Assembly: GCA_913060495.1 (NCBI GenBank)
Contig: CAJXRP010000006.1
Span: 124,001-188,000, forward strand
Length of the DNA: 64,000 nucleotides
Direction: 5' to 3'
Source of the DNA: an uncultured Gammaproteobacteria bacterium
Lineage (GTDB): Bacteria > Pseudomonadota > Gammaproteobacteria > Pseudomonadales > Pseudohongiellaceae
Under the pieces are notes generated by a model. The model worked only from the letters and a program-made list of their open reading frames with translations. It was not told where the DNA came from and did no database searches. This document shows, one piece after another, positions 48,037 through 63,410 of this stretch. Position numbers and translations under genes: made by a program. Position 1 is the first letter of the stretch; each line of letters starts with the position of its first letter.

Positions 48037-48137
48037 GGTTTGTCTTCCGGTTTTGGTTTTGATTGTGTGGATTTGCTAGTTTGCCAGTTATTGGGAGGTA
48101 ATTCATGGGAGAAACACACGAATTGACCTTTGAGTGC

Positions 48138-48271
48138 TGAAGGCTTCTCTATTAGGGCTTTTTGAGTTGGGCGCTGTGCTTGAATTTGTCTAGAGGGATT
48201 GATTCAGGTTTTGGCTGAGCCAAATTCTTCGCCCTACGGGCGGCCTTTGGCCGTCTGCGACGCTACGCGTC
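48138..48271. repeat. Multi-hairpin intergenic repeat, copy 1
   Basis: It shares a 5' part (TGAAGGCTTCTCT ... TTTTTGAGTTGG ... GCTTGAAT) with copy 2, then an identical 50-base core at 48210-48259. The core folds into three adjoining hairpins: TTGGCTGAGCCAA, CGCCCTACGGGCG and CGGCCTTTGGCCG. A fourth hairpin follows at 48259-48271 (GACGC-TAC-GCGTC). A fifth weak one (CCCCT/AGGGG, 48275-48297) is only in this copy. Confidence 0.9.
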
Positions 48272-48375
48272 TTTCCCCTATACGCCCTTAGCAGGGGATA
48301 CGATACTGATTGGGGCGGGTTACTGGTAGGTTGTTGCTGATGTTGGGCCGTGCGATTGGGTTGACGTTTTGAGGG

Positions 48376-48509
48376 TGAAGGCTTCTCTGTTGCAGTTTTT
48401 TGAGTTGGCACCTTGCTTGAATCCGTCGGTCGGGATTGACTCATAATTTGGCTGAGCCAAATTCTTCGCCCTACGGGCGGCCTTTGGCCGTCTGCGCTGC
48501 TATCGCAGC
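48376..48509. repeat. Multi-hairpin intergenic repeat, copy 2
   Basis: The identical 50-base core is at 48447-48496. The fourth hairpin differs in sequence (GCTGC-TATC-GCAGC, 48496-48509) but keeps its pairing. The copies are direct repeats about 237 bases apart. Confidence 0.9.
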
Positions 48510-48542
48510 TTTCGAACCGGAGGTTTCTCTGCCTATCTCTCT

Positions 48543-48593
48543 CCGCCATATACAAAAAACCCGACTCTAAGTCGGGTTTTTTGTATATGGCGG
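48543..48593. terminator. Perfect 24-bp inverted repeat, bidirectional terminator
   Basis: Arms 48543-48566 and 48570-48593 are fully complementary around a three-base loop. The centre AAAAAACCCGACT/AGTCGGGTTTTTT is a classical two-way terminator. It could end transcripts from the MFS gene (363 bases away) or from the repeat side. Confidence 0.85.
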
Positions 48594-48955: not shown

Positions 48956-50137
48956 TTAGGCTCGCACATTTTCTTGACGAAGTAGAACAATTAAGACCGT
49001 GAGCCCGAAGAAAAGAAATACGGCTCCAGACAAGTATAGGGCATATTGAAGGCTATAAAGGTCTGCCATATAGCCAAAAATTGGAGATGTTGAAGCAAAG
49101 AGAACTCGGATGATAAAGCTTCGTATAGACATGACGGTTGCGCGCATATTCGAAGGTATATGTCTGTTCATGTAGTCGCGTAGTACAGGTGTCGCCACTC
49201 CTCGGGTAATGTAAAAAACGAGTAATACTAATATTCCCCATAAGTTACCGGTATAGGCAACTGTGAAATAACAGGTAGTAATAAGGACTAACAATAAAAT
49301 GAGCAAGGTTTTGGTGTTTATTCTGCGCTCTATCTCGTGTGCGTAGAAGGACGGTATGGCAACAGCCAAATTTAGTCCCGCGCCAATCAATCCAAAATAT
49401 ACCACTTCAATATTAAGTGACATAAAGTAGGGCTGCACAAACCAAGCCATAGTTAATGTGGCTGCGCCAAATACTGACGAGTAAAGAATGTAAGCTCTCA
49501 GAATTTTACTTTCGATCATGGCATAGTGAATGATTCTCTTAATGTTCTTCCAAGGTTTGCTTCTGCCATCTTTTATTCGATGTACTTTGGGCTCCACAAG
49601 CAGAAGTGCAACACCGAAACCGATCAGGGCAATGCCAACTTGGTAGTAGAATGGAGTTCTTAAACTAATTTCAGCCAAAAAACCTCCGATCACAAAGGCA
49701 AGCGCTTCTGCTAGATTCCCCATTGAGATCGTTCTTCCCTCCAGTTTAATGAAGTCATCACTTCGATTTAACTCTACAAGAGAGTCATACATTAATGCTG
49801 TATCTGATCCAGAGATAAAACTTTGGCCAACTCCTAAACAAAGTGCGGCTAACAAGAACCCATCGAAACCATATGAAATAGAATAAGTTAGGATGCCTAA
49901 GAACCCAAAGAAGGTTCCTATGACCATTGAGTTTTTTCGCCCCAGGACATCGGCTACATAGCCAGAGGGAATTTCTATAAGTGCTATGGTTACGGAATAG
50001 ATTGCTTGAATTACAAACAGGTCGGTGATGGTGAGGCCATTCTCTTCATAAAATAGCCAGATAATAGGCATGAAAAGCGCCATCCATTTGGATGTCTTGA
50101 TGACATAAAGTTTCCAAATGTTTGAACTGACGCTCAT
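48956..50137 (-). CDS. MFS transporter
   Basis: The 393 residues have about twelve hydrophobic segments. The loop between segments 2 and 3 reads SGYVADVLGRKNSMVIG, the MFS signature D-x-x-G-R-K. LTITDLFVIQAIYSVTIALIEIPSG and the late ITRGVATPVLRDYMNRHIPSNMRATVMS resemble a group of poorly characterised MFS proteins often annotated as drug or sugar efflux. The substrate is unknown. The gene reads left toward the repeat block; base composition is more AT-rich than its neighbours, which hints at transfer. Confidence 0.85.
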   Translation of the reverse strand: MSVSSNIWKLYVIKTSKWMALFMPIIWLFYEENGLTITDLFVIQAIYSVTIALIEIPSGYVADVLGRKNSMVIGTFFGFLGILTYSISYGFDGFLLAALCLGVGQSFISGSDTALMYDSLVELNRSDDFIKLEGRTISMGNLAEALAFVIGGFLAEISLRTPFYYQVGIALIGFGVALLLVEPKVHRIKDGRSKPWKNIKRIIHYAMIESKILRAYILYSSVFGAATLTMAWFVQPYFMSLNIEVVYFGLIGAGLNLAVAIPSFYAHEIERRINTKTLLILLLVLITTCYFTVAYTGNLWGILVLLVFYITRGVATPVLRDYMNRHIPSNMRATVMSIRSFIIRVLFASTSPIFGYMADLYSLQYALYLSGAVFLFFGLTVLIVLLRQENVRA

Positions 50138-50361: not shown

Positions 50362-51708
50362 TCAGTCAACACCTACAACTGAGCGTAGCTCTTTCTCTTT
50401 GCGCTCTTCAGTTAGCCTATCAAAGCCCGCAACGTCTAAATGAGTTACCGCAATCCATGCATGGTTCATTTCGTCGGCTGTTCGGCTGCCCCACACTACG
50501 AACTGGTCTGGGTCGGTTACGTTCGGATTAGCTGAAGTATTGTCATACCACTGCTTTAGGACAAGAACGGCTCCGGTGGGAAGCAAAGGGGCCACGTCTG
50601 GGTTGTAGATATGGCTATGGTGCCATGTGGCACTCCACTTAGATACTTGACTGATAGCTTCGGTGCGGCCAGTTTCTGGATAAAATACCTCCAGCGAAGC
50701 TGCATTCATGCGCAGGTGGCCATGAGGTTGAAAGCTGTCTATGCGAACTGGGTGGTCGAAGGACTGGAAGCCTTCTACCATTGCGTAACCGTTAGCGGGG
50801 ATAAGAAGGCCATCCTCTGTGCCGATTTGATATTGCTTCAGGTCCTGTTTGTATTGAGCCTGCTCTTCATAGTCTTCTGGATGTAACCAAAGAGCCACTT
50901 CGACAATATTGTCTTTAATCATAGTGCCTGGCGCGTTAGCTCCAAGACCACCTGGAAACATATGAATGCTCCAGCGAACCCGTGACCCAGCGGGAATTGT
51001 GCGGCATACACCATCGGGAACGATTTCACCCCATTTGCCCATGGCGTATTCAGTCAATTGGCCATAAGTCGCAAATTCACCCTCTTCAGTAGGTGCGTAA
51101 ACATCAGCATTAGCATGATGCACTACAGCTTGGGCATCGCCCCGAGGCTTCACTTGCACAGCCTTGATGCAGCGATCTGCATTTAGCCCCAGATCCACGA
51201 AGTGTTTGCTCCACAGATCATTTCCGTCAGCTGGTATATCTATGGGCAGAGACTCGACAATTTTGTCGGGAGCTCCAAATTCTCCGGTGAAGTTCCAATC
51301 ATTTGGATCCGGCAAGATAGGCATTTTAACCACGACGTCGGGATCACCCTGGGGTGAGCCTTGATTAACCCAAGCGACGATAGTATCAATGTCGCCTTGT
51401 TCTAGGCGCCAGTCACCTTCGAGGTCTTGAATGCCAATACCGTGATCGTAGGCATACGGAGGCATAGTTCTGTCGGCGACTTTCAGTTGGATGAGCGGCG
51501 CCCAGGGTCGCACCTGATCATAGTTCGTCAATTGCATTGGGCCGATACCGTCTTCTCGGTGACAAATCACACAATTTTCATTAAGAATCTGTCCAACTTC
51601 ACCATTATAGGTGACCGTGTGATCGGCATTAGTTTGAGCCAGCGCTTGGCTCTGCAACCCCATCACTATGACTGCGGCTAATCCAAGGCAGCTCTTTGGA
51701 ATATTCAT
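50362..51708 (-). CDS. Exported cytochrome c / PHM-like copper monooxygenase fusion
   Basis: The 448 residues start with a signal peptide (ending SQALAQ). A heme c site CVICH lies at 46-50, and TMPPYAYD near 81 offers an axial Met. The rest resembles the two-domain copper type II ascorbate-dependent monooxygenases (PHM, dopamine beta-monooxygenase). All six expected ligands are there: HH 197-198 and His 249 for one copper, His 329, His 331 and Met 414 for the other. WYDNTSANPN before the Met is a family hallmark. The enzyme should act in the periplasm, with the fused heme as a likely electron donor. The substrate is unknown. A shared operator lies 22 bases before the start. Confidence 0.8.
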   Translation of the reverse strand: MNIPKSCLGLAAVIVMGLQSQALAQTNADHTVTYNGEVGQILNENCVICHREDGIGPMQLTNYDQVRPWAPLIQLKVADRTMPPYAYDHGIGIQDLEGDWRLEQGDIDTIVAWVNQGSPQGDPDVVVKMPILPDPNDWNFTGEFGAPDKIVESLPIDIPADGNDLWSKHFVDLGLNADRCIKAVQVKPRGDAQAVVHHANADVYAPTEEGEFATYGQLTEYAMGKWGEIVPDGVCRTIPAGSRVRWSIHMFPGGLGANAPGTMIKDNIVEVALWLHPEDYEEQAQYKQDLKQYQIGTEDGLLIPANGYAMVEGFQSFDHPVRIDSFQPHGHLRMNAASLEVFYPETGRTEAISQVSKWSATWHHSHIYNPDVAPLLPTGAVLVLKQWYDNTSANPNVTDPDQFVVWGSRTADEMNHAWIAVTHLDVAGFDRLTEERKEKELRSVVGVD

Positions 51709-51729
51709 TTTTTGCTCCTAAGAAGGTAA

Positions 51730-51745
51730 TTATTCAAACGTATAA
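51730..51745. promoter_or_regulatory. Cluster operator motif, site 1
   Basis: TTATTCAAACGTATAA, a variant of the near-palindrome TTATnCAATTGnATAA, lies 22 bases upstream of the cytochrome c/PHM gene on its promoter side. A second shared string, AATACAAG at 51766-51773, is 36 bases from the site start, the same offset as at site 2. Confidence 0.7.
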
Positions 51746-52063
51746 AATACCGACTGTATAGGTCAAATACAAGCATTTTCTGCGGGTATTCAAGGAGTGT
51801 GCAAGGGGAGTGCTGAGATAATAGCTTATTGATATTGTTGGATATATCTAAAAGTTAAGCATGCGCATCGTGATCTCTGTGCTTTGCGGAGGCAGATAAG
51901 CAGTTCGATAAGACTTGGCCACTTGGAGAGCAGGGTTTCTCGTTTTACGAAACAGTCTCACTGCTTCCCGGAAACAAGGACTAGGGAGAAATCCTGCCCA
52001 GATGGCTGCAGTGAACAACTCCATGTTTTGTAAGTCAGCCACTGCGAGCCCTAATTGGCGTAG
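51746..52063. other. Gap between two leftward cluster genes
   Basis: Apart from promoter DNA near its left end, it holds only a 64-codon minus-strand frame at 51848-52042 without a recognisable domain or ribosome site. I do not count that as a gene. The frame could be a decayed coding remnant. Confidence 0.4.
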
Positions 52064-53005
52064 TCAAGGCGTGACAGTGATTCGCTGGAAAACATTTGTC
52101 CAACAACATTGGTTGGTATCGGAACTATCCGAGGAGCTAAAATTGTCCACCTTCGCATGAATGATGTAATTACCAGGTTCAGAAAAGTTGGCATAGACTC
52201 GGGCCAGCCCCTCTTGGCCAGGTACAGAAACTACATTAGGGCCATCTCGTTTAGCAGACCCTCTGCAGCCTTGGCACAGAGGGTCGGCCCCTCTCTCGGA
52301 TTTAGCGACGACGACTGTATCCGGGTGGCGAGTAAATATCACCGTACCGGGACCTTGGTGCTTGTTGAATGTAACGCCTATTGGCAATATCTCAGCGTAA
52401 CGAGGGTCGCTAGAATCGCGCACGGAATTATCTTTCGCTCTTACGGTCAACAATACTTCGGACTCGGCGGTCACGGAATCAGGGTAGTCGCGAACAGAAG
52501 CCAACAGCCCCGGAGAAATGTCTCTACTTTCCCCAAAACCGGCAAGCGGCTGCAGCGCGCCCTCCGGTCGTGGCAGTATGAAGTCTAACTCGTAACCCGC
52601 GCGGTCAGCTCGACCAGGTACTCTAACAGTATCCTGATCGTCGGTTTTAAGATTCCACCAGACCTCGGTATCTATTTTGTCCACAGGAACCGTGACGGAA
52701 AAAACGCCGGTGTGTCGGCCAGGAGAGAAATGCGTAGGTTGCATAGAGCCAAATTCGGCTGGATCTAAAAAATTGGCGTCTCCCAAGGGGATTTCAACAG
52801 CTGTCTCATTTCTATTCAGGTAGCCGAATGAAAAACTTCTCGTCCCATCTGGGTTTGCGACCCAGCCTTCCATTATAGGAATGATTGGCAAGCCTTCAGG
52901 CGGGGCAATACTAAGGAAGCGAGGTTGTTGTGCTTGCCCTGAAACACTGATTAACATGAGTAGTACAAGACCAAGCATGCTGAGAATTTTGCGTGATTGC
53001 TGCAT
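52064..53005 (-). CDS. Secreted protein of unknown function with late Cys motifs
   Basis: I do not recognise the family. From ATG 53005, with a GGAGAG ribosome site, it has 313 residues and a signal peptide ending SVSGQAQ. The mature protein looks beta-rich: FSFGYLNRNETAVEIPLG suggests a beta-sandwich near residue 60, and another VRVPG-type region follows near 140. Near the C-terminus are CQGC (about 257-260) and CC (about 302-303), which could bind a metal or form disulfides. No catalytic signature is seen. It carries operator site 2 upstream, so it belongs to the PHM/PAL cluster. It may be a structural partner or a substrate-binding protein. Confidence 0.75.
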   Translation of the reverse strand: MQQSRKILSMLGLVLLMLISVSGQAQQPRFLSIAPPEGLPIIPIMEGWVANPDGTRSFSFGYLNRNETAVEIPLGDANFLDPAEFGSMQPTHFSPGRHTGVFSVTVPVDKIDTEVWWNLKTDDQDTVRVPGRADRAGYELDFILPRPEGALQPLAGFGESRDISPGLLASVRDYPDSVTAESEVLLTVRAKDNSVRDSSDPRYAEILPIGVTFNKHQGPGTVIFTRHPDTVVVAKSERGADPLCQGCRGSAKRDGPNVVSVPGQEGLARVYANFSEPGNYIIHAKVDNFSSSDSSDTNQCCWTNVFQRITVTP

Positions 53006-53094
53006 TGTTGTGCTCTCCAAATTGCAGTTGCGATGGGCCTTTTTGACCATTATTGAGGTTGTTCGATAATGGAATTTAGCAATTATTGTAATAT

Positions 53095-53110
53095 TATTCA
53101 ATTGTATAAA
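53095..53110. promoter_or_regulatory. Cluster operator motif, site 2
   Basis: TTATTCAATTGTATAA, an exact complement-strand copy of the motif, lies 90 bases upstream of the secreted-protein gene. The following TATAAAATAACG and AATACAAG (53131-53138) repeat the arrangement at site 1. Confidence 0.8.
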
Positions 53111-53314
53111 ATAACGCTTATACTTGCAGAATACAAGGTATTAATATCGCGTAAAGGTTCGGAAAGTAAGGAAACACTGGAGATCAAAATATAGAGCCTT
53201 TGGAGGAGGGAGCTCAATATCGTTTTGGCTCGATCACTGTGGAATTGCTCTGGCCGAGGCCAATACTGAATGTGCATGCAGTCGTCCAATACCCGGTAGG
53301 TTCCGGGACATCTT

Positions 53315-53980
53315 TTAGAGAAGCGACAGTCTGGATTTGCGCGCATTGCTATAGTGCTTGGCAACAGCACTTTCAGCAATATCTGGATCATGTGATTCGA
53401 GGGCTTTGATAATAGAGGCATGTTCGTTGTAAGCATCATTGATGCGCTCGGGGTTATTAAATGGCCGTCCTTGAAGTAGTCCAATTTTAATGCGTAAGCG
53501 TCTTAATGTTTGTGATAAATAATCGTTATTACAAGCGTCGTACAGCACGGTATGAAATTGGTTGTCAATTTGAGAGAGCTTTTCGGGTTCATCTCTTGCC
53601 TTGTCAAACAGCGACAAATTGGCCTTGAGCATTTCAATTTCTAAGTCTGAAATATGCACAGCAGCGGCGCGGGCAGCAACAATTTCGAGTTCATCGCGAA
53701 CATGATAAAAACCTTCAGCCTCTGCAGCTGATAATTGAGTGACGCACACTGTGCCGCCTGGTAATAGTTCAAGTAAGCCCTCAGTCAATAGCTGGCGTAT
53801 TGATTCACGAATGGGTGTGCGGCTCATGCCCAGCTTTTGGGCCAGAGCAGCAAAATCGATTTCCTCTCCAGGATTGATTTTTCGAGTCTGGATAGCATCA
53901 CGGAGATAGGCTAGCGCTTGATCCGTCAGTGGCATATTTTTCTGTGCAGTTGCTGGTGCGGGCTGTTTAGATTTTGTCAT
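53315..53980 (-). CDS. GntR-family regulator with FCD domain, copy 1
   Basis: The 221 residues have an N-terminal winged helix (about 20-85; FAALAQKLGMSRTPIRESIRQLLTEGLLE is the recognition part) and an all-helical FCD ligand domain. IDNQFHTVL, NEHASIIKAL and AKHYSNAR provide the Asp and His residues that bind metal in this subgroup. FCD regulators usually respond to small carboxylic acids. It is about 87 percent identical to copy 2 (29 differences by my count). Operator site 3 is 177 bases upstream, consistent with autoregulation. Confidence 0.93.
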   Translation of the reverse strand: MTKSKQPAPATAQKNMPLTDQALAYLRDAIQTRKINPGEEIDFAALAQKLGMSRTPIRESIRQLLTEGLLELLPGGTVCVTQLSAAEAEGFYHVRDELEIVAARAAAVHISDLEIEMLKANLSLFDKARDEPEKLSQIDNQFHTVLYDACNNDYLSQTLRRLRIKIGLLQGRPFNNPERINDAYNEHASIIKALESHDPDIAESAVAKHYSNARKSRLSLL

Positions 53981-54285
53981 TTGGCAGAGAATGTAAAGAA
54001 GCTTTTATTGTAGAGAAAATAGTCTAACAACCAGAGGTGTTGGGCTAAATACGTAGATCAGACGAGGGATAAATGAAACTCAATTCTCAATTTCTTATGA
54101 CATCGCCTGAGTTATACACAGCATAAGTTCTACTATAATCGTGCATTAGTATCACCTTATACATTTGAATATTATAGTCAAGACTAGATTGCACTAAAAT
54201 CGTTCGATCGACTAGACCGCCACAACATCGAGCGATCCGGGGAGATTTCATGGTTCAGTTGGTGGTGGGTAGTGATTATCTACGG
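53981..54285. other. Gap between the two GntR genes, part of the duplicated segment
   Basis: It holds operator site 3, and at 54021-54046 a weakened version of the hairpin found at 55215-55240 (AGTCTAAC / GTTGGGCT). On the minus strand two pairs are lost and no T run follows. No gene is seen. Confidence 0.6.
54157..54172. promoter_or_regulatory. Cluster operator motif, site 3
   Basis: TTATACATTTGAATAT matches the motif with two changes. Flanking bases on both sides (TGCAT before, AGTCAAGAC after) are shared with site 4. On the minus strand GTCTTGACT overlaps a possible -35. Confidence 0.65.
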
Positions 54286-54951
54286 TCAGAGAAGTGACAG
54301 CCTGGATTTACGTGCGTTGCGATAGTGCTTGGCAATTGCTCTTTGGGCTTTATCTGGGTCGTGTGATTCGAGGGCTTTGATAATAGAGGAGTGTTCTTTG
54401 TAAGCTTCATTGATGCGCTCGGGGTTACTAAATGGCCGTCCTTGAAGGAGTCCAATTCTAATGCGTAAGCGTCTCAATGTTTGTGACAAATAACTATTGT
54501 TACAAGCATCGTGCAGTATCGTATGAAACTGATTGTCAATTTGAGAGAGCTTTTCGGACTCAGTTCTTGCGCTGTCAAACAGCGCTAAATTTGCTTTGAG
54601 CATTTCAATTTCTAAGTCTGAAATATGCACAGCGGCGGCGCGGGCAGCAACAATTTCGAGTTCATCACGAACATGATAAAAACCTTCAGCCTCCGCAGCT
54701 GATAACTCAGTGACGCACACTGCGCCACCTGGTAACAGTTCAAGTAGACCTTCAGTCAATAGCTGGCGTATCGATTCGCGAATGGGTGTGCGGCTCATGC
54801 CCAGCTTTTGGGCCAGTGCGGCAAAATCGATTTCCTGTCCAGGATTGATTTTCTGCGTCTGGATTGCATCACGCAGATAAGCCATCGCTTGATCTGTCAA
54901 TGGCGTATTTTGCTGTGCGGTTGTTGGCTCGGGCCGTTTAGGTGTTGTCAT
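54286..54951 (-). CDS. GntR-family regulator with FCD domain, copy 2
   Basis: A 221-residue paralogue of the regulator at 53315, with identical domain layout. The recognition helix is identical through RTPIRESIRQLLTEGLLELLPGG, so both should bind the same DNA. Differences concentrate in the first 16 residues and in the last 60, including parts of the FCD pocket region (DSARTES for DKARDEP), so ligand response may differ. The leader before its start is about 235 bases longer than in copy 1. Operator site 4 lies 400 bases upstream. Confidence 0.93.
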   Translation of the reverse strand: MTTPKRPEPTTAQQNTPLTDQAMAYLRDAIQTQKINPGQEIDFAALAQKLGMSRTPIRESIRQLLTEGLLELLPGGAVCVTELSAAEAEGFYHVRDELEIVAARAAAVHISDLEIEMLKANLALFDSARTESEKLSQIDNQFHTILHDACNNSYLSQTLRRLRIRIGLLQGRPFSNPERINEAYKEHSSIIKALESHDPDKAQRAIAKHYRNARKSRLSLL

Positions 54952-55207
54952 TTGCTAGAGAGTGTAAAGAATCTTTGATTGCAGGGGAAGTCCCCGTTGA
55001 GTTCTGATAAATAAGCGAAAATCGGGCAGCCCAGCGTCCGTTTCAGATCTGGCCCAGCCCTTCAGCACCGCACTTCCTTATTCCTTTCGTAGTATATCTG
55101 TGGGTAGTGGAGGGCAGCGAATTGCTCAAATCGAGGAGCGCATGGCATAAAGTCGCAAGTAGTAGCTTTTGAGGTCGGAGGATGCTGCGGATCAGCTGTT
55201 TCTGGAG

Positions 55208-55240
55208 AAAAAAAAGCCCAACAACCAGAGGCGTTGGGCT
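55208..55240 (-). terminator. Intrinsic terminator inside the GntR copy 2 leader
   Basis: On the minus strand AGCCCAAC pairs with GTTGGGCT around a ten-base loop, followed by eight T. It would stop transcripts entering from the hydrolase gene at 55509 or from a promoter at site 4, before the regulator. Confidence 0.85.
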
Positions 55241-55350
55241 AAATGGCACATCTAAGAGGAGAGTATGTGAATCAAAGCTCCACAGTTTCGATTCACACTT
55301 TCTTGCATATACACGACAGAAAACCTGTGCTAGTCATGCATAAGATAACT

Positions 55351-55366
55351 TTATACAATTGAATAA
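55351..55366. promoter_or_regulatory. Cluster operator motif, site 4
   Basis: TTATACAATTGAATAA, an exact motif copy, lies between the serine hydrolase stop and GntR copy 2. On the minus strand TTGACT lies next to it and TATAAA inside it (spacing 15), a possible weak promoter. Confidence 0.75.
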
Positions 55367-55508
55367 TCCAAGTCAAGACAAGGTTACATCTAAGTTATTC
55401 GCCCGGAAGAACCCCATGCCTTGAAAATAATTTGTGAAAATTCCAGTTGCCACAAATGCGCTAGTGGGTACTTGCCAGTGCAGGAGTTATAGGAACAAGT
55501 TGAGATTT

Positions 55509-56780
55509 TTACTCTAGCGCCTGGTAGACCATGGTGTTGAATTTCGCCCGGATGTCCGATTGGCTTGGGCGGACCTGAGACATGAATACAGCGATCAGAT
55601 TTTCGCTTGGGTCAATCCAGTATGAGGTAAGGTATGCTCCGCTCCATGAGTATGTGCCAATCGAACCTAGCTCGCCTACCTTCGCGGGATCAACAATAAC
55701 TTCGAATCCCAAGCCGAAATCAGGAATTTGATCACCGTCCGAATCGATGCGAGGGCTTTGCATAAGCTCCACAGACTTGCGACTCAATATTCGAGAGCCA
55801 TCCAATTCTCCGTTGTTCAGCAGCATTTGTACAAAGCGTGCGTAATCATAGGCTGTGGATGACACCCCGGCACCACCCGAAAAATAACTCTGACCATCTC
55901 CTGCTGGGTAACGTGGGTTATCTAGAATGATGTTGGATTCATATCCTCGCGAGACGGTCAGTCCTTCTTCACCTACCTCTGCATAGAGTGTGACGAGACG
56001 ATCGGACTTGGCTTTCGGCAGATAGAAATAGCTGTCCTGCATGTTCAGTGGAGTAAAAATTTCCTCGGTGAAAAACTGGTCCAGTGGTTTGCCGCCGATC
56101 ACTTCGATGAGGTATCCAAGCAGGTCGAGACCGAGGCCGTAAACGTATCCTGAGCCGGGTTCGAAAAGCAGCGGTTGCGTGGCCAAAAGCTTCATTTGGG
56201 CAGCGAGAGTAATGTCCCTGCTGGTCATTCCATCGATTACTCCGGCATCAACATAGGACTTCTGCACACTGTTGGACGCAAACGGATAACTAATTCCTGA
56301 TGAGTGTGTGAACAAATCAATGATCTTGATTTGCTTAGTAGCGGGGACTGTGGCGGACACATCACCATTGGCATCCACCTCGGATACCACCCTCATGTCG
56401 GCAAACTCGGGAATATACTTCGAAACTGGGTCGTTCAGCTGAAAAAGTCCGCGCTCATAGAGGATCATCGCACCCACTGAGGTGATTGCCTTGGTCATCG
56501 ACGCAAGGCGAAATATGTTGTCTTTCTGCATCGGTGTTTGCGTATCGATATCGGCAAAACCGAAACTCTTGAAATAGGCGAGTTTGCCATTTCTGGCAAC
56601 CAAGGCAACCGCACCCGGAATCTTCCCGCTGGCAATTTCGGCGTTGATCACCGCATCGATTTTGCCCAAGCGTTCCTGCACGAAACCAGTGCTGTCGAGC
56701 GGATCAGACTCTGCAAACTGGGCCCATGCGGTATTGGCTGTAAGGAGCAACAGGGCGGTTACTAAAGTCGCTATTCTCAT
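55509..56780 (-). CDS. Exported class C beta-lactamase-like serine hydrolase of the cluster
   Basis: From ATG 56780, which has GGAG directly before it, the product is 423 residues with signal peptide ending ANTAWA. S-x-x-K is SMTK in LASMTKAITSVGAM near residue 92. Tyr motif YVYGLGLDLLG stands near 215, and a late SWSGAYLTSYWIDP occupies the third region. It resembles the hydrolase at 13325 in length and motif context (SMTK, then LFTHSSGISY), so it is probably an esterase or amidase relative rather than a resistance enzyme. Being inside the PHM/PAL cluster, it may act on the same substrate class. Confidence 0.85.
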   Translation of the reverse strand: MRIATLVTALLLLTANTAWAQFAESDPLDSTGFVQERLGKIDAVINAEIASGKIPGAVALVARNGKLAYFKSFGFADIDTQTPMQKDNIFRLASMTKAITSVGAMILYERGLFQLNDPVSKYIPEFADMRVVSEVDANGDVSATVPATKQIKIIDLFTHSSGISYPFASNSVQKSYVDAGVIDGMTSRDITLAAQMKLLATQPLLFEPGSGYVYGLGLDLLGYLIEVIGGKPLDQFFTEEIFTPLNMQDSYFYLPKAKSDRLVTLYAEVGEEGLTVSRGYESNIILDNPRYPAGDGQSYFSGGAGVSSTAYDYARFVQMLLNNGELDGSRILSRKSVELMQSPRIDSDGDQIPDFGLGFEVIVDPAKVGELGSIGTYSWSGAYLTSYWIDPSENLIAVFMSQVRPSQSDIRAKFNTMVYQALE

Positions 56781-56923
56781 TTTTTTCTCCATGAAGTGGT
56801 TCTCCTGACTTGGGCGTCGTTCAATAATTAATTTGGAAAAATAGAGAACCAGACTGCTTTCTCATAAACAGAAAAAAGCGGGAAATCCCGCCGCCTGGCC
56901 CGATCTTATGGCTAGATTAGGTA

Positions 56924-58117
56924 TTATGGGATTAGGCGCGGAACGAAACGAGTCATCCCCTTAAAAACACCCACATCCCCAGCATAAATATTGCCATCTT
57001 TGTCGGTAGTAACACCTTCACCCATGGCGCCGACACCACCCATGCCAGACGGCCGAATTGTGGAGACGTGTTCGGGTATGAAATACAGCACTTCGCCATT
57101 GCGAGCATTGCCAACACGAAGTCCTTTTCTCCAACCACCCGGGTTGTAGTTTTCATCAGATTCAGAATCAATGGCGTAAAGTAAGTCGTTACTAGGGTCT
57201 ATGTGGATTCCTGAAATTCGACTGAATTGGTACCAGGTATCTAACCACTCTCCGTCTTGGGTAAAGATCTGAATGCGATTGTTTCCACGATCTGCCACAA
57301 AGAGACGGCCCTGTGAATCCATAGCAAGACCGTGTGGCGAGCGGAACTGCCCATCGTCCCAACCGTATTCGCCGAAGTGACCTATGTAAGTGCCATCGGG
57401 CTCCCACATGGTTATCCGGCTCTTGGTATCCGGATTTGGTTCATTTTGAAACTGAGCAGCGTGAGTTTCAGCTATATAGATGCGGCCATTCGGAGCGATC
57501 AAAACATCGTTTGGGTCGGTAAGATGAGTGGGTGGATCGCCCACCTCGCCCGGCGTACCGATGGTCATTAACAGCTCACCGTCGGGACTAAATTTTAGTA
57601 TCGCGCTACCCAAATTGGCCGCCGCAGGGTTTTCGTTAATTTCTTCGATCCTCGCAACGCGGGAATCAGCAATCCAGACATTGCCTTCGTGATCCACATC
57701 CATGCCATGGGGCCAGAGAATTTGGCCGGCGCCGAATTGCTTGACCACGCGCCCATTCGGATCGAGTTTAACAATAGGGTTAATATTCGGGGTCGTGGCG
57801 CATTGATTGTTACCGCAACGATCTCCTGCCCACACGTGCACGCCATCGATATCGATATCTACCGCGCTGACAGAGCCCCAACGGCGGCCATCTGGCAAAG
57901 AGCCAAAATTACGCTGGGTGACATAAGGGTTTGGCAAATTGTTAATAGGTCGTTGACCTGCATGTGCAGCTGGCTTTCCAGTCTCTGCCATTGATCCGTC
58001 GGTCTGTGCCATGGGGTTTGTTTGCGCCATAACCCCAACAGATGCCAATGAAAATATAAGTCCCACCAACCCAGTTTTTATCAGGGCTTCTAAACAGACG
58101 ATATTGTTATTACTCAT
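56924..58117 (-). CDS. PAL-like six-bladed beta-propeller (NHL repeats), exported
   Basis: The 397 residues have a signal peptide (ending VGVMAQ) and NHL repeats from about 75 on. Blade sequences align with animal peptidyl-alpha-hydroxyglycine alpha-amidating lyase: WPHGMDVDHEGNVWIAD (His 137), TDPNDVLIAPNGRIYIAE, SPHGLAMDSQGRLFVADRGNNRIQ (His 262) and EGVTTDKDGNIYAGD. Two of the three zinc His are kept. The third, in an expected PHD, is replaced by GEG (366-368), and the catalytic Tyr region reads ETHAAQ. It is therefore PAL-like but may not be an amidating lyase. It lies in one cluster with two PHM-like proteins. Confidence 0.8.
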   Translation of the reverse strand: MSNNNIVCLEALIKTGLVGLIFSLASVGVMAQTNPMAQTDGSMAETGKPAAHAGQRPINNLPNPYVTQRNFGSLPDGRRWGSVSAVDIDIDGVHVWAGDRCGNNQCATTPNINPIVKLDPNGRVVKQFGAGQILWPHGMDVDHEGNVWIADSRVARIEEINENPAAANLGSAILKFSPDGELLMTIGTPGEVGDPPTHLTDPNDVLIAPNGRIYIAETHAAQFQNEPNPDTKSRITMWEPDGTYIGHFGEYGWDDGQFRSPHGLAMDSQGRLFVADRGNNRIQIFTQDGEWLDTWYQFSRISGIHIDPSNDLLYAIDSESDENYNPGGWRKGLRVGNARNGEVLYFIPEHVSTIRPSGMGGVGAMGEGVTTDKDGNIYAGDVGVFKGMTRFVPRLIP

Positions 58118-58425
58118 TATGCTCTCTCTTGATTTCTAGGATTATGAACAAACTTCTAACAACATAAGTTTTGGTCTGCTTCTCTGTTGCGACTAATGCT
58201 GATGTCTTTTATTGTCTATCATACATTCACCGATTTTCCATGTTAGGGGGCGCAATAATGATTCGCCAGTATGCCTTTCAAGACTATGAGTCAAAACTAC
58301 AGTATAAATAGTCTTGTACATTTCTACGAGTAAATTATACAATTGAATAAATATTTATGTCCATCTCGAAAACCCGCTAAACTAAAGTAGTTCTTTCAAA
58401 GTGTTTATTGAATAGAGACAAAGCC
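58118..58425. other. Divergent promoter region between the PAL-like gene and a secreted-protein gene
   Basis: It holds operator site 5 and a good rightward promoter: TTGTAC (58313-58318), then 16 bases later TATACA overlapping the operator. No leftward promoter for the PAL-like gene could be assigned. Confidence 0.55.
58335..58350. promoter_or_regulatory. Cluster operator motif, site 5
   Basis: TTATACAATTGAATAA, identical to site 4, lies 76 bases upstream of ATG 58426 and overlaps the probable -10 TATACA of that gene, so a bound regulator would block transcription. Confidence 0.8.
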
Positions 58426-59448
58426 ATGAAAATCAATATGAGTCGAATCCCGCCTTACATACTCTGTATTTTTACTCTCGTCACTGGAAGCGCCGCGTGC
58501 GCTCAAGCTGGCTATCAGGTTCCTCGAACTAGCGACGGACAGCCCGATCTCCAAGGCGTGTGGGCAAATAACACTGTTACTCCTGTGCAGCGACCGGATT
58601 TATTCGAAGGCCGGGAGTTTCTCACCGCGCAAGAGATGCAAATTATATCGCAGCGAGCAGGCGAAATTACTGCAGAGGCCGATGACGCCCTGTTTGGCGA
58701 ATCAGTGATTACATCAGCCTTGTCAGGAGATACTGGATCCAATGATCCCTCCACTGGTAACTACGACCAGTTTTGGTTGGCGGAACGGAGTATACATAAC
58801 CGCACTTCCCAGATTATTGACCCATCGAATGGCAAATACCCCCCACTTACTGAGGAGGGCATAGCCAGAGGTGAGCGTATGGCCCAGTTGCGGAATAACT
58901 CGGCTGCCGTCGGCGAGAGATTTGAAACTCTCGACTCCTATGCGACTCTGAGCCAAGATGACCGTTGCATCACCAATGGCGCACCCTATCTGGATTCTGG
59001 ATATAACAGCTACTGGCAAATTGTACAGTCCAAGGACTACGTCGTAATCCTGCAGGAGATGATGCATGACGCCCGAATCATTCCCCTTACCGATATGCCC
59101 CATGCGCACGAGGCTATCGAGCTTTTGCATGGTGATTCCCGAGGTTACTGGGACGGCGACACCTTGGTGGTGGAAACGCGCAACTATTCGGATAGGAGTG
59201 AACATAGCCACAACCGCGCCGAGTTAAATGTTGAACGCATTACTCGCATCGGTGATGGACAGATGCGTTATCAACTTACGTCGAACGACCCCAGTACTTA
59301 CTCTGCCCCTTACACTCGGGAAATTATTTTTGACTATTCCGACGGAGATATATACGAGTTTGCCTGTCACGAGGGCAATTATGCGCTGCCTAATATGTTG
59401 CAGGGTGCGCGGGAAGCGGAACGGCGAGAGGCCGCCGGCGAGAAGTAA
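58426..59448 (+). CDS. Secreted protein of a widespread unnamed family (QGVWANN / ACHEGN motifs)
   Basis: From ATG 58426 the product is 340 residues with signal peptide ending ACAQA. DGQPDLQGVWANNTVTPVQRP opens the mature protein, GYWDGDTLVVETRNYS lies near 250, and YEFACHEGNYALPNMLQGAR ends it. These motifs recur in many exported proteins of Acidobacteria and marine gammaproteobacteria with no established function. Two mature Cys, in DDRCITNG and FACHEG, could form a disulfide. It runs opposite to the PAL-like gene and is followed after 45 bases by the PHM-like lipoprotein, so the two form a probable operon under site 5. Confidence 0.8.
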   Translation: MKINMSRIPPYILCIFTLVTGSAACAQAGYQVPRTSDGQPDLQGVWANNTVTPVQRPDLFEGREFLTAQEMQIISQRAGEITAEADDALFGESVITSALSGDTGSNDPSTGNYDQFWLAERSIHNRTSQIIDPSNGKYPPLTEEGIARGERMAQLRNNSAAVGERFETLDSYATLSQDDRCITNGAPYLDSGYNSYWQIVQSKDYVVILQEMMHDARIIPLTDMPHAHEAIELLHGDSRGYWDGDTLVVETRNYSDRSEHSHNRAELNVERITRIGDGQMRYQLTSNDPSTYSAPYTREIIFDYSDGDIYEFACHEGNYALPNMLQGAREAERREAAGEK

Positions 59449-59493
59449 ATTACATCTTGACCTGATTAAATGAATAAGGAGAGGGAGGAAATC

Positions 59494-61425
59494 ATGTCAG
59501 CCATTCGGCCACTGATTGCCGCCCTCGTCATTTTCCTATTTCTGGCCGGGTGTGCAACTTCCGGCAATCGCATCAGCAGGGAAATTCTGCCCATCCCCAG
59601 CTCTGAAGTCACCAACCATAGGCACGACGACACCCAACTGATGGAATCCGAAGGCGCCGCACCCGGCACCCCGTTGGAACATCTCTCAACTCCCCAATTG
59701 AAGACGAGCTGGCAACTAGGCGAGCCTGATCTGATCGTGAAGCTCCGGGCGCCGTATTCGCTCCCGCCAGAGGCTTCCGACGTATTCCGCAATTTCGTAA
59801 TACCGAATGTAACTACGTCAGATCGCTATGTGCGCGCGCTCGAATTCAGGTTAGGCAATCACGAAGTCGTACATCATGCCGAGTTTCGACTCGACGAGAC
59901 TGACGTCTCGTGGCGCCGCGATAACGAGGAGCCCGGCACAGGGTACGGGGGGATGGACAACGCAACGGCACACTATCCTGACGGCCATTTCGTGAATTGG
60001 GTCCCAGGGAAGCGAGCTTCCGAATTGCCCGAAGGGCTTGCCTGGCGACTCCCGGCCCACGCGGATCTTGTGGTTCAGCTACACATGATGCCGTCGGGTT
60101 TCGAGGAAGTCATCGATCCAATAATAGGGCTCTACTTTGCCGACGAGCTTCCTAAGCTGAATCCGCAGATGATCTGGCTTGGTTCGCGTTGGCTGCCCGT
60201 CGAAGCGGGTGACACCAACTTTGTGACTCGCGACAGCTACGAGTTGCCCATCGATGTCGATGTACTGAGCGTTCTGCCTCACTGCCATTTCATCTGCAAG
60301 AACATCAAGGCGTGGGCTATTCTTCCGGACGGCAGCCAGCAGTGGCTCGCGAGGGTTGAGGAATGGGATTTTTACAGCCAGAACGAGTCCCGCTTCAATC
60401 GGCCGCTCAGTCTGCCGCGTGGCACGACTGTGTCGGTGGAGTTCGGCTACGACAACTCCATAGGCAATAAGCGCAACCCCAATAATCCGCCGCAAGACAT
60501 CGAATTTGGCCCACTGTCATCGAACGAGATGGCCGACTTGTGGATTCAGGTCATGCCCCGCAACGAGCGCGAGAGTGAAAGTCTGAGACGTTTCTCCGCT
60601 CGCCACCTGCAGCAGAGGATGATTGAACGGCAGGAACGGCTCGTGGAACTCGAACCGGACGTCAACGGCTACATTGAGCTGGCCCACAGCTATAAGCGTG
60701 CTAGTCAGGTGGATAAGGCCGTAACTCGCCTTCAGGAGGCGCTGCAGTTCGCGCCTGAGAGCACCGCGGTGCTGGAGAGTCTTGCCATCGCGCTGACGGA
60801 TGTGGGACGACACGACGAGGCGCTCAATCACTGGAGGCGTTGTGTCCAGCTCGCTCCGAACGATTCGCGTGCGCATCTCAATTTGGGTACGGCTCTCGGT
60901 TTCTCGAATCAGGTTGCGGAAGCGGAGTCTCATCTGAAACTCGCTACGGAGCTGGATCCTGGCTTTGCACCGGCATTCTTTCGCCTGGGTCGCGCACAGT
61001 CCTACCAGGGTCGTTTCGACGATGCTCTGCTAAGTTACCGCGCCGCCTTGGCGCTCAACCCTAATGAACCCATGGCCCTCCATGCCGCGGCCCGCTTGCT
61101 GGCAACTCATCCTGATCTAGGCAAGCGCAGACCCAGCGAAGCTCTAGAGTTGGCCAGCCGAGCGCTGCGACAGCTCCCTAAGCCCGACGCCATGTCGCTA
61201 AGTACGCTAGCGACGGCTCAGGCGGCAACAGGTGGCTTTGAATTGGCTGTAACGACTGCGAGGCTGGCTTTGAGCCGAGTCGCACCCGATGAGAGATCAC
61301 TGGAATCTAAAATAAGGCGCCAGGTAGACCTCTACGGACAGGGTCGGATCGAAGTTGCAAGAGCAGCGGGTAGCAAGCGATTTGTTGCTCCCAGCGAGAG
61401 GCATTCTGTTAGGCGTGTGGAGTGA
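59494..61425 (+). CDS. Lipoprotein with PHM-like copper monooxygenase domain and C-terminal TPRs
   Basis: From ATG 59494, behind GGGAGGAA, the product is 643 residues with lipobox LAGC (Cys 20). Residues about 75-355 have the copper type II monooxygenase pattern with all six ligands: HH 127-128, His 197, His 263 and His 265 (HCH), Met 346. FGYDNSIGNKRNPN is the loop before the Met. Five TPR-like repeats fill about 390-600. There is no cytochrome motif, unlike the PHM-like protein at 50362. The gene is visibly richer in G and C than its neighbours, which suggests separate acquisition. It should sit on a membrane facing the periplasm; the TPRs may recruit a partner or a peptide substrate. Confidence 0.8.
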   Translation: MSAIRPLIAALVIFLFLAGCATSGNRISREILPIPSSEVTNHRHDDTQLMESEGAAPGTPLEHLSTPQLKTSWQLGEPDLIVKLRAPYSLPPEASDVFRNFVIPNVTTSDRYVRALEFRLGNHEVVHHAEFRLDETDVSWRRDNEEPGTGYGGMDNATAHYPDGHFVNWVPGKRASELPEGLAWRLPAHADLVVQLHMMPSGFEEVIDPIIGLYFADELPKLNPQMIWLGSRWLPVEAGDTNFVTRDSYELPIDVDVLSVLPHCHFICKNIKAWAILPDGSQQWLARVEEWDFYSQNESRFNRPLSLPRGTTVSVEFGYDNSIGNKRNPNNPPQDIEFGPLSSNEMADLWIQVMPRNERESESLRRFSARHLQQRMIERQERLVELEPDVNGYIELAHSYKRASQVDKAVTRLQEALQFAPESTAVLESLAIALTDVGRHDEALNHWRRCVQLAPNDSRAHLNLGTALGFSNQVAEAESHLKLATELDPGFAPAFFRLGRAQSYQGRFDDALLSYRAALALNPNEPMALHAAARLLATHPDLGKRRPSEALELASRALRQLPKPDAMSLSTLATAQAATGGFELAVTTARLALSRVAPDERSLESKIRRQVDLYGQGRIEVARAAGSKRFVAPSERHSVRRVE

Positions 61426-61492
61426 GTATTTACGAAATCCCAATTGGCTTGTTGTAGACGCTGTTTTAAGAAGCTGATAAATAAACGCACTT

Positions 61493-61732
61493 TTGCTGAG
61501 AGATATTGGTTGCGCGGGTACACGACACGATGATGATCTCTATTTAGAACTGAAGCTAACATCTCAAAACCATGGTCAGATAGACATTCCGGAATTGACA
61601 GAATTCAAACCTCAAACTCTGATAGCCAATACTAGCGGTGAATTCAGGCTCTATCGAATTGGCGACTCCGTCGCGTCACGTAATATTCACGCATCGATCT
61701 ATGAGGCGCGAAGACTTTGTCAGGTGTTTTGA
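61493..61732 (+). pseudogene. C-terminal remnant of an NADH:flavin oxidoreductase
   Basis: The frame ends RIGDSVASRNIHASIYEARRLCQ. This closely resembles the end of FMN/FAD-dependent 2,4-dienoyl-CoA reductase/trimethylamine dehydrogenase-type enzymes, where a GD-x-x-x-R-x-I-x-x-A-I motif binds FAD. DDDLYLELK earlier fits the same family. Only about 70 residues remain; the N-terminal 600 or so are missing and the upstream 60 bases do not continue the frame. The surrounding 368-base gap holds nothing else. Confidence 0.6.
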
Positions 61733-61793
61733 GGAAGTGAATTCATGTGAGGCTTGGGCTCCCGTTGTGTTTCCTGTTCAAGAATTTACTCTT

Positions 61794-63410
61794 CTAAGGT
61801 AGTTGCGGCCCAGCGGCTACTAGAGCTTTGCCTGCGCTGTTGTCGGTGAATTTCTCAAAATTTTCTACAAATAATTCTGCTAGATTGATTGCTTTTTTGT
61901 TCCATGTGGCAGCAGCCCCATAAGTATTCCGAGGGTCAAGTAGGTTGCTCTCAACCGAGTTCACAGATACTGGTACTTCTAAGTTAAAGTAGGGAAGAGT
62001 AAAGGTCTCAGCGCTATCTATGCTCCCATCGAGTATTGCTCGAATAATGGCGCGAGTGGTAGAAATTGATATTCGCTTGCCTGTTCCATTCCAGCCAGTA
62101 TTGACGAGGTAGGCAGTCGATCCAGCCGCATCCATTCTTTTAACCAATTCCTGTGCGTACTTCGTAGGATGTAGCGAAAGAAATGCCGCGCCAAAACAGC
62201 TAGAAAAAGTAGGTGTAGGCTCAGTCACACCACGTTCAGTACCGGCCAGCTTTGCAGTAAAGCCCGAGAGGAAGTGGTATTTAGTTTGCTCTGGCGTTAG
62301 CTTCGATACCGGAGGAAGTACGCCAAAAGCGTCTGCCGTAAGAAATATGACTTGTTTGGCGTGGCCTCCTTTCGAAATAGGCTTGACGACATTCTCGATA
62401 TGATAAATCGGATAGGAAACTCGTGTGTTTTCGGTCTTGGAAGCGTCATCGTAGTCTATGATCCCTGCCTCGTTAACGCTAACATTTTCCAACAATGCGT
62501 CACGACGGATCGCCTTGAATATGTCTGGTTCACTTTCCTTGCTCAATCTGATGGTTTTAGCATAACAGCCTCCTTCAAAATTGAAGACTCCCTCGTCATC
62601 CCAGCCGTGCTCGTCATCGCCTATTAGCTCCCGTTCTGGGTCGGTAGAGAGGGTGGTCTTTCCAGTACCGGAGAGGCCGAAAAAAATTGCCGTGGTTCCA
62701 TCTTTGCCAGTATTTGCAGAGCAGTGCATAGATGCCATGCCGTTGAGTGGCAATACGTAGTTCATCATCGAAAACATGCCCTTTTTCATCTCGCCGCCAT
62801 ACCAGGTTCCGCCAATTAGCTGAACCTTCTCAGTAAGATTAAACGCAATGAAGTTTTCTGAATTCAAACCCTGTTGTTGCCAGTCAGGATTTGAGCACTT
62901 AGCGCCATTCATTACGATAAAATCGGGCTCGAAATCTTGAAGTTGTTCGGGCGTTGGCCGTATGAACATGTTCTTTACGAAATGTGCCTGCCAGGCGACT
63001 TCCATGATGAACCGTACTTTCAAATGACTGTTCTCATTTGCACCGCAGATTGAATCGACTACATAGAGTTGTTTTCCACTAAGTCTATCGGTTACTTTCG
63101 ACTTGAGGCTTGTCCAAGTTGCTTGGTCGATGGGCTTATTGTCGTTCTTACCTTGGTCTGACCACCACACCGTGTCTCGGGTTATGTCATCCCTCACTAA
63201 ATATTTGTCTTTTGGAGATCGTCCGGTAAAAACTCCGGTATCTACCGCAATCGCTCCCGCTTCTGTCAATTTTCCTTTCTCGTAGCCGTTCAGCTGGGGA
63301 TTTGTTTCTTGCCTAAAAAGAAATTCATAGGATGGGTTGTAGAAGACTTGATCGGCATCAGTGATGCCATATTGGCTTAAGTCCGGAGTCGTTTGCTGCG
63401 ATTCTTCCAT
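61794..63410 (-). CDS. pckA: Phosphoenolpyruvate carboxykinase (ATP)
   Basis: PckA converts oxaloacetate and ATP to PEP, the entry to gluconeogenesis. The 538 residues fit the ATP-dependent family. Key sites are [10 protein letters not shown] near residue 60, the [11 protein letters not shown] active-site stretch near 205, the P-loop [12 protein letters not shown] near 245, the metal site LIGDDEHGW near 263, and [11 protein letters not shown] near 330. It stands alone, reading left; the 223 bases upstream should hold its promoter. Confidence 0.98.

What the first reader, a model, noticed from the sequence alone, without database searches (positions are those of the whole stretch)
50362..61425. 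Possible bacterial PHM-PAL-like oxidative pathway under one regulon
In animals PHM hydroxylates the alpha carbon of glycine-extended peptides and PAL cleaves the product to an amide. Here two exported proteins carry the full six-ligand PHM-type copper site (197/198/249/329/331/414 and 127/128/197/263/265/346). A PAL-like propeller lies between them, with a serine hydrolase and two secreted unknowns. Five copies of one operator tie them together. I infer a periplasmic pathway that hydroxylates and cleaves a small molecule or peptide, possibly a catabolic route for N-acyl or glycine conjugates. Only the motifs and clustering are direct evidence.
Basis: partly seen in the sequence, partly recalled or inferred. 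Interest (0 to 1): 0.82.

Follow-up and report, generated by a model that had tools for sequence, protein, structure and literature searches.

The report
Haem-linked bacterial PHM/PAL-like catabolic regulon
A marine bacterium appears to control, with one regulator, exported copper enzymes built like those that finish animal peptide hormones, one of them fused to a haem-type protein, next to genes that look set to break down a nitrogen-containing compound; what that compound is remains unknown.

Summary

(1) P0001 has a c-type haem motif (CxxCH plus Met), as do 185 of 191 family ORFs, so electrons probably come through haem. (2) "Unknown" P0002 is a dedicated PHM partner: 28 of 29 homologues in four genomes lie within 500 bp of a PHM gene. 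(3) The propeller keeps two zinc-type His and both Arg of PAL, but Tyr became His and the third His became Glu: PAL-like, not PAL. (4) Operator sites also stand before a TonB-receptor-like ORF, a second PHM-P0002-P0005-PAL-like operon, a pipecolate-oxidase-like gene and hydantoinase/lactamase-type HyuB-HyuA.

PHM-PAL linkage is enriched but loose. Best reading: exported haem-linked hydroxylation, then cleavage, of a nitrogenous, perhaps cyclic-amide, compound for catabolism. Substrate and lyase activity are inferred. New variant of a known kind.

The parts
50362..51708 (-). P0001: exported (signal-like start, by eye) haem c-PHM fusion. CxxCH motif C46-C49-H50 with M82, then a PHM/DBH-type copper core (residues about 144-428; ligands H197 H198 H249 H329 H331 M414)
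   Evidence: Ligands; family conservation; model; fold match; cytochrome c Pfam hits above cut-off in paralogues L084 and L085. P0001 itself has no Pfam hit above a cut-off.
52064..53005 (-). P0002: exported protein of unknown fold (ORF list starts it at 53101; an ATG at 53005 precedes the signal-like segment); dedicated neighbour of haem c-PHM genes
   Evidence: 28 of 29 homologues in four genomes within 500 bp of a PHM gene, shift mean 0.40, maximum 7; no Pfam or NCBIfam hit; CCW near the C-terminus in 40 of 43 aligned.
53315..53980 (-). P0007: GntR/FCD-type regulator, copy 1
   Evidence: Pfam GntR and FCD above cut-off; operator 177 bp upstream.
54286..54951 (-). P0008: GntR/FCD-type regulator, copy 2, tandem duplicate of P0007
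   Evidence: Pfam; 86% DNA identity over 300 bp; one copy only in L089/L122 (same place) and L109.
55509..56792 (-). P0003: exported serine beta-lactamase-fold hydrolase
   Evidence: Pfam Beta-lactamase 1.7e-67; best NCBIfam match methyl acetate hydrolase AcmB, 170 bits against a cut-off of 550; present in L087-L090.
56924..58117 (-). P0004: exported NHL propeller, PAL-like; R100, H137, H219, H262, R277 and E367
   Evidence: PDB PAL match; residue conservation over 50 aligned rows.
58426..59448 (+). P0005: exported protein of an unnamed family with many paralogues in this genome (ORF list starts at 58408)
   Evidence: No Pfam or NCBIfam hit; 35 matches in the own genome.
59494..61425 (+). P0006: apparent lipoprotein (LAGC at residues 17-20) with PHM-type copper ligands, no haem motif, and a C-terminal TPR region
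   Evidence: Ligands; TPR hits; orthologues in 5 of 67 genus genomes.
51730..51745 (.). operator, 22 bp before P0001 (2 mismatches)
   Evidence: same place in L087, L088, L089 and L109.
53094..53109 (.). operator, 89 bp before P0002 (exact)
54157..54172 (.). operator before P0007 (2 mismatches)
55351..55366 (.). operator 400 bp upstream of P0008 (exact)
58335..58350 (.). operator in the divergent P0004/P0005 promoter region (exact)
48956..50137 (-). MFS transporter downstream of P0001, with a homologue in the same place in some relatives
   Evidence: Pfam MFS_1; homologue after PHM in L108, L110 and L111.

Best explanation
This is the exported front end of a GntR-controlled catabolic regulon. 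One regulator (P0007/P0008) acts on TTATWCAATTGWATAA sites. A haem c-linked, PHM-type dicopper monooxygenase (P0001, with partner P0002) and a haem-free TPR version (P0006) hydroxylate a C-H bond of a nitrogen-containing compound outside the cytoplasm, using O2 and electrons that arrive through the haem. The PAL-like metal propeller (P0004) then breaks the unstable hydroxylated intermediate. Smaller products enter the cell, where lactam/hydantoin-type HyuA/HyuB and oxidase, transaminase and aldehyde dehydrogenase steps finish them. Shown: gene content, operator sites, ligands, the PHM fold of P0001, partner linkage. Inferred: regulator binding, substrate class, reaction order, haem as electron donor, hydroxylase and lyase activity.
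For: PHM/DBH fold and ligands. Haem motif in 185 of 191 family ORFs. P0002 next to PHM, 28 of 29. PAL-like propeller with R100, H137, H219, H262 and R277 in 50 of 50 rows and E367 in 47 (His in 3). In the own genome 14 of the 20 operator sites at up to 2 mismatches, and all 8 at up to 1, lie on C6, C34 or C35; the reversed control has 4. They stand before a TonB-receptor-like ORF and a PHM-P0002-P0005-PAL-like-PQQ operon, beside a pipecolate-oxidase-like gene and before HyuB-HyuA. In the other loci I held, the site occurs 6 times in 1.86 Mb, 4 of them in that second operon's locus L069. Hyu block and PHM genes share a contig in G243, G265 (only P0005 and P0006 parts), G198 and G194. Orthologues of P0006 and HyuA (88% or more) co-occur in 4 of 67 genomes, with 1 more having only each, Fisher P = 3e-5.
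Against: 33 of 39 PAL-like genes lie more than 5 kb from a PHM gene, and the 2-kb test is not convincing. The propeller lacks PAL's Tyr and third His. G230 has the start of the Hyu block without PHM on that contig or a P0006 orthologue, and G269 has P0006 without a close HyuA (85% complete), so the two parts can be separate. HyuA/HyuB fall far below the caprolactamase cut-offs, so the ring substrate is not identified. The sites before HyuB and before the second PHM operon in this genome have 2 mismatches. No biochemical data exist.
Confidence: 0.5

Rival explanations
1. The haem c-PHM/P0002 pair is a general exported hydroxylase for many compounds, coupled mainly to PQQ or GMC-type alcohol dehydrogenases that oxidise the alcohol and could return electrons through c-type cytochromes. 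The propeller is not a lyase but another metal hydrolase or isomerase that shares the regulon.
For: 14 to 33 PHM-like places per genome in five genomes. PQQ-type dehydrogenase genes lie in 11 of 77 named PHM loci and in L067, L068, L069 and L078 of the own genome; GMC oxidoreductases in 12 of 77. Most PAL-like genes lie away from PHM.
Against: PHM-PAL proximity within 5 and 10 kb still exceeds chance, and three more PHM/PAL-like arrangements exist in the own genome beside the window (L067, L068, L069). Enrichment of the dehydrogenases near PHM was not tested.
Confidence: 0.3
2. A true peptide-amidating or N-acylglycine pathway: PHM hydroxylates a glycine alpha carbon and the propeller releases an amide and glyoxylate.
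For: PHM fold and ligands; both PAL-type Arg and two His conserved.
Against: PAL's Tyr is His in all 50 rows and its third His is Glu in 47 of 50. The regulon carries lactam/hydantoin-type and pipecolate-oxidase-like genes; its ThDP protein's 25 best NCBIfam matches (of 51) are mostly acetolactate synthases and include no glyoxylate carboligase.
Confidence: 0.1
3. The PHM-like proteins do not catalyse hydroxylation but move copper or electrons in the cell envelope.
For: A sister group of 36 ORFs has lost the two CuM histidines (HxH to RxN/S/G) yet keeps haem, the Met and, in 35 of 36, the CuH His.
Against: P0001, P0006 and 153 others keep the complete set, and among the regulon genes that I annotated none looks copper-handling.
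Confidence: 0.08

Closest known systems
PHM and DBH (copper type II, ascorbate-dependent monooxygenases)
   Different: 10-15% identity in the structural alignments; N-terminal haem c motif in P0001; near-constant neighbour P0002; many paralogues per genome; bacterial catabolic setting.
Animal PAL (PDB 3fvz/3fw0)
   Same: NHL propeller; aligned PHG His, second His and both Arg (residue roles and numbers recalled).
   Different: Tyr to His (H219), third zinc His to Glu (E367). Generic NHL propellers (Thin, TRIM71) score higher through their many repeats.
Methylguanidine hydroxylase/lyase MdgH-MdgL (PMC12508155; start of abstract and two passages seen)
   Same: Bacterial two-step N-dealkylation with a dedicated lyase; its authors write that they know of one similar activity, PAL.
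   Different: 2-oxoglutarate/Fe-dependent dioxygenase family hydroxylase; they state that PAL and MdgL share no sequence homology.
ATP-dependent caprolactamase CapAB of Pseudomonas jessenii (PMC8453981, PMC6061476; search listing and start of abstract only)
   Same: HyuA/HyuB of this regulon match its models best in NCBIfam.
   Different: Scores of 519 and 238 bits against cut-offs of 1000; other substrate likely.

Membership tests
PHM/DBH copper monooxygenase superfamily | PHM/DBH double beta-sandwich fold | tested here: met
PHM/DBH copper monooxygenase superfamily | Six copper ligands HH, H, HxH, M | tested here: met
   P0001 and P0006; 155 of 191 family ORFs. Distances not measured.
PHM/DBH copper monooxygenase superfamily | Pfam PF03712 above its gathering score | tested here: inconclusive
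   No hit for P0001 or P0006; above cut-off in three paralogues (L072 twice, L077); 1 of 62 members of A4 matches at E 0.01.
PHM/DBH copper monooxygenase superfamily | O2-dependent hydroxylation with ascorbate as reductant | not testable with these tools
   Needs purified protein; the haem motif suggests another electron route.
PAL (peptidyl-alpha-hydroxyglycine lyase) | NHL-type propeller related to PAL | tested here: met
   3fvz E 9.7e-14 with P0004, 6e-43 with the family profile; NHL Pfam hit. Blade number not modelled.
PAL (peptidyl-alpha-hydroxyglycine lyase) | Three zinc His (numbers recalled: 585, 690, 786) | tested here: not met
   Two present in 50 of 50 rows (H137, H262); third is Glu in 47 of 50, His in 3. 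H262 and the third position are paired with PAL by eye and recall, from fragments printed.
PAL (peptidyl-alpha-hydroxyglycine lyase) | Active-site Tyr (recalled 654) | tested here: not met
   Aligned residue is H219, His in 50 of 50 rows.
PAL (peptidyl-alpha-hydroxyglycine lyase) | Two active-site Arg (recalled 533, 706) | tested here: inconclusive
   R100 and R277 in 50 of 50 rows, but their pairing with PAL's Arg rests on recalled motifs, not on a printed alignment.
c-type cytochrome domain | CxxCH plus distal Met | tested here: met
   C46-C49-H50 and M82 in P0001; 185 of 191; Pfam cytochrome c above cut-off in L084 and L085. Haem attachment not testable here.
GntR/FCD regulators | GntR DNA-binding and FCD domains | tested here: met
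   Both above cut-off in P0007 and P0008. Binding to the operator not tested.
Caprolactamase CapAB | Curated model cut-off | tested here: not met
   519 and 238 bits against 1000; Pfam Hydantoinase_A/B are met.

The most novel reading that the evidence does not exclude
Bacteria use a PHM/PAL-type two-step oxidative N-dealkylation as a catabolic entry route: a haem c-fed dicopper monooxygenase with its own partner protein hydroxylates next to an amide nitrogen in the periplasm, a His/His/His/Glu propeller cleaves the carbinolamide, and an ATP-dependent lactamase-type enzyme opens the freed cyclic amide.
Probability: 0.28. Interest if true: 0.88.

Novelty: new variant of a known kind. Interest (0 to 1): 0.72.

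Why it matters
PHM-type enzymes are known to me from animals and some other eukaryotes, fed by ascorbate. Here the core is fused to a c-type haem motif and has a near-constant partner, with 14 to 33 PHM-like places per genome in five genomes of one marine family. If the lyase step holds, peptide-hormone chemistry has a bacterial, degradative counterpart. In the listings of my paper searches, judged by titles and abstract starts, I saw no paper on a bacterial haem-linked PHM; the listings were capped (20 of 135, 15 of 220, 10 of 348, 15 of 8,276), and the library lacks most subscription papers.

Tried and rejected
Calling the propeller PAL: rejected on the Tyr-to-His and His-to-Glu changes. Calling PHM-PAL pairing obligate: rejected, 33 of 39 PAL-like genes lie more than 5 kb from PHM. 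Calling HyuAB a caprolactamase: rejected on scores. Calling the ThDP enzyme a glyoxylate carboligase: not among the 25 best of 51 NCBIfam matches. A profile of 14 diverse PHM proteins was too varied to scan genome contigs; a closer set of 7 was used. One search was badly aimed and its listing held nothing relevant. P0002 structure: never accepted by the queue, so its fold is unknown. The fold search hardly tested the haem region, since most rows span 144-428.

Rows dropped; 61 PAL places became 39 (15 of G178 left out because its contig lengths were not all known, 7 under 200 bits left out); 105 PHM places became 80 (G178 left out); the G173 length was the rounded 3.3 Mb. Own genome: 11 of 15 PAL matches (95 bits or more) and 20 PHM genes collected, an incomplete list (one search scored 11 of 23 candidates); split pieces of one P0002 gene were merged; the 11 own-genome matches were left out: 8 lie within 500 bp of a listed PHM, a ninth 1.4 kb away, and 2 (C15, C20:40406) have none in my list; 50 rows of 53 assigned; some are the same gene fetched twice; 199 ORFs became 191 after exact duplicates. 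HyuA: 8 of 67 genomes match at 1e-100; I counted the 5 at 88% or more (one a 238-residue fragment at a contig end), leaving out three genomes at 36-37%. Six of the 20 operator sites (C5, C7, C8, C9, C13, C18; all 2 mismatches) were not followed, except C5, which lies inside an ORF and is probably chance.
Full report
WHAT IS THERE. The window lies on contig 6 of a 3.6 Mb genome. Close relatives in the named collection are labelled Pseudohongiella sp., OM182, SAR86 and unclassified Pseudomonadales, Gammaproteobacteria or Proteobacteria; PMC8371827 (passages seen) places OM182 in Pseudohongiellaceae. I take this as the family by inference.

PARTNER. P0002 has no recognised domain. In four genomes other than the own, 28 of 29 P0002 homologues lie within 500 bp of a PHM gene; shifted positions give 0.40 on average, at most 7. 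In the own genome 8 of 11 do against an incomplete PHM list. The reverse is not true: 29 of the 80 PHM places have P0002 that close. The haem c-PHM plus P0002 pair is thus a tighter unit than PHM plus PAL.

PROPELLER. P0004 is an NHL propeller. PAL (3fvz) is matched at E 9.7e-14, while Thin and TRIM71 NHL domains score higher through repeats. The family profile matches PAL at 6e-43. Over 50 aligned rows R100, H137, H219, H262 and R277 are invariant; E367 is Glu in 47 and His in 3. In the alignment printed, H137 pairs with PAL's PHG His and H219 with the Tyr of VSDGYCNS. The pairing of H262, E367 and both Arg is mine by eye and recall. So the site is metal-like but altered, and I call the protein PAL-like.

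LINKAGE. In the own genome 4 of 11 PAL-like genes lie within 5 kb of a PHM gene (P = 0.0025). In four other genomes 6 of 39 do (shift mean 1.87; 18 of 2000 shifts as high); within 10 kb 8 of 39 (3.13; 28 of 2000); within 2 kb 3 of 39 (0.99; 166 of 2000), which is not convincing. PHM-P0002-PAL-like runs in L068, PHM-P0002-P0005-PAL-like-PQQ dehydrogenase in L069, and PHM and PAL-like are divergent in L067. Nineteen of 77 named PHM loci contain a PAL-like gene, many of them the same arrangement in related genomes. The association is probably real but loose.

OPERATOR AND REGULON. The five sites are confirmed and stand in the same gaps in relatives; outside the orthologous loci the held DNA has 6 sites in 1.86 Mb, 4 of them in L069. 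A genome-wide scan finds 20 places at up to 2 mismatches against 4 for the reversed control; 14 of the 20, and all 8 with at most 1 mismatch, are on C6, C34 and C35. On C34 three sites precede an ORF that I read as a TonB receptor from its start (not scanned), one with 2 mismatches precedes the PHM-P0002-P0005-PAL-like operon, and an exact one lies between a membrane-protein ORF and a symporter-like ORF (labels by eye). C6:191302 lies at the start of a pipecolate-oxidase-like gene, with another GntR gene on its other side. C35:319 and 349 (2 mismatches each) precede HyuB-HyuA-ThDP-SDR-transaminase; in G243 that site is exact and lies between ALDH and HyuB. C35:22367 (exact) precedes an aldolase-like gene. 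The Hyu block shares a contig with PHM genes in G243, G198 and G194, and with the P0005-P0006 part in G265, whose contig ends there; the order differs in G198. In the own genome C6 ends and C35 begins at matching points, so they are probably neighbours. In 67 genus genomes P0006 orthologues occur in 5 and close HyuA orthologues in 5, together in 4 (Fisher 3e-5). G230 has the start of the Hyu block without PHM.

HOW IT MOST LIKELY WORKS. Shown: genes, motifs, P0001 fold, operator footprints, linkage. Inferred: a receptor or porins deliver a nitrogenous compound; P0001 with P0002 hydroxylates it with O2 and haem-delivered electrons; the propeller cleaves the product; transporters pass the pieces inward; HyuA/HyuB hydrolyse a cyclic amide; oxidase, transaminase and aldehyde dehydrogenase finish. 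PQQ dehydrogenases near several PHM genes could recycle electrons at cytochrome c level, but their enrichment was not tested. PMC12508155 (passages) describes a bacterial hydroxylase plus lyase N-demethylation with other enzymes, and its authors write that PAL was the one similar activity they knew.

VERDICT. A real, unusual system; a new variant of the PHM/DBH kind with a PAL-like companion. Substrate and lyase activity remain open.

Noticed in passing
L112:3282-5006 -, L071:10777-12516 + and 34 others: A sister clade of 36 PHM-like ORFs, often divergent from P0002-PHM clusters and many with an AhpC/TSA-like part, has lost the CuM HxH (RxN/S/G) but keeps haem, Met and, in 35 of 36, the CuH His; single clade with support 1.0.
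   Followed up: partly
P0005 and own genome: An unnamed exported family without Pfam match has 35 hits in this one genome.
   Followed up: no
L067, L068, L069, L078, L110: PQQ-type dehydrogenase genes next to or near haem c-PHM genes (Pfam run on those of L067 and L069 only).
   Followed up: partly
L175:12061-13758 and 11 other named loci: GMC oxidoreductase near PHM genes, with a 172-aa TAT-like protein in 11 loci; a cupin in 25 and an MFS transporter in 28 of 78 loci recur as neighbours.
   Followed up: no
G243 (L212:2890-4950), G265 (L215:5314-7350): An FMN/FAD oxidoreductase (OYE type; Pfam run on the first only) sits between the TPR-PHM gene and PEPCK; the window has no such gene at 61425-61794.
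   Followed up: no
window 48123-48593: Direct repeats of 107 and 48 bp and a perfect 24-bp hairpin just beyond the 3' end of the MFS gene.
   Followed up: no
G173:C1:693453-698972: Run of four PHM-core matches without the haem part and one separate haem-part match; stops are reported inside four of the five.
   Followed up: no
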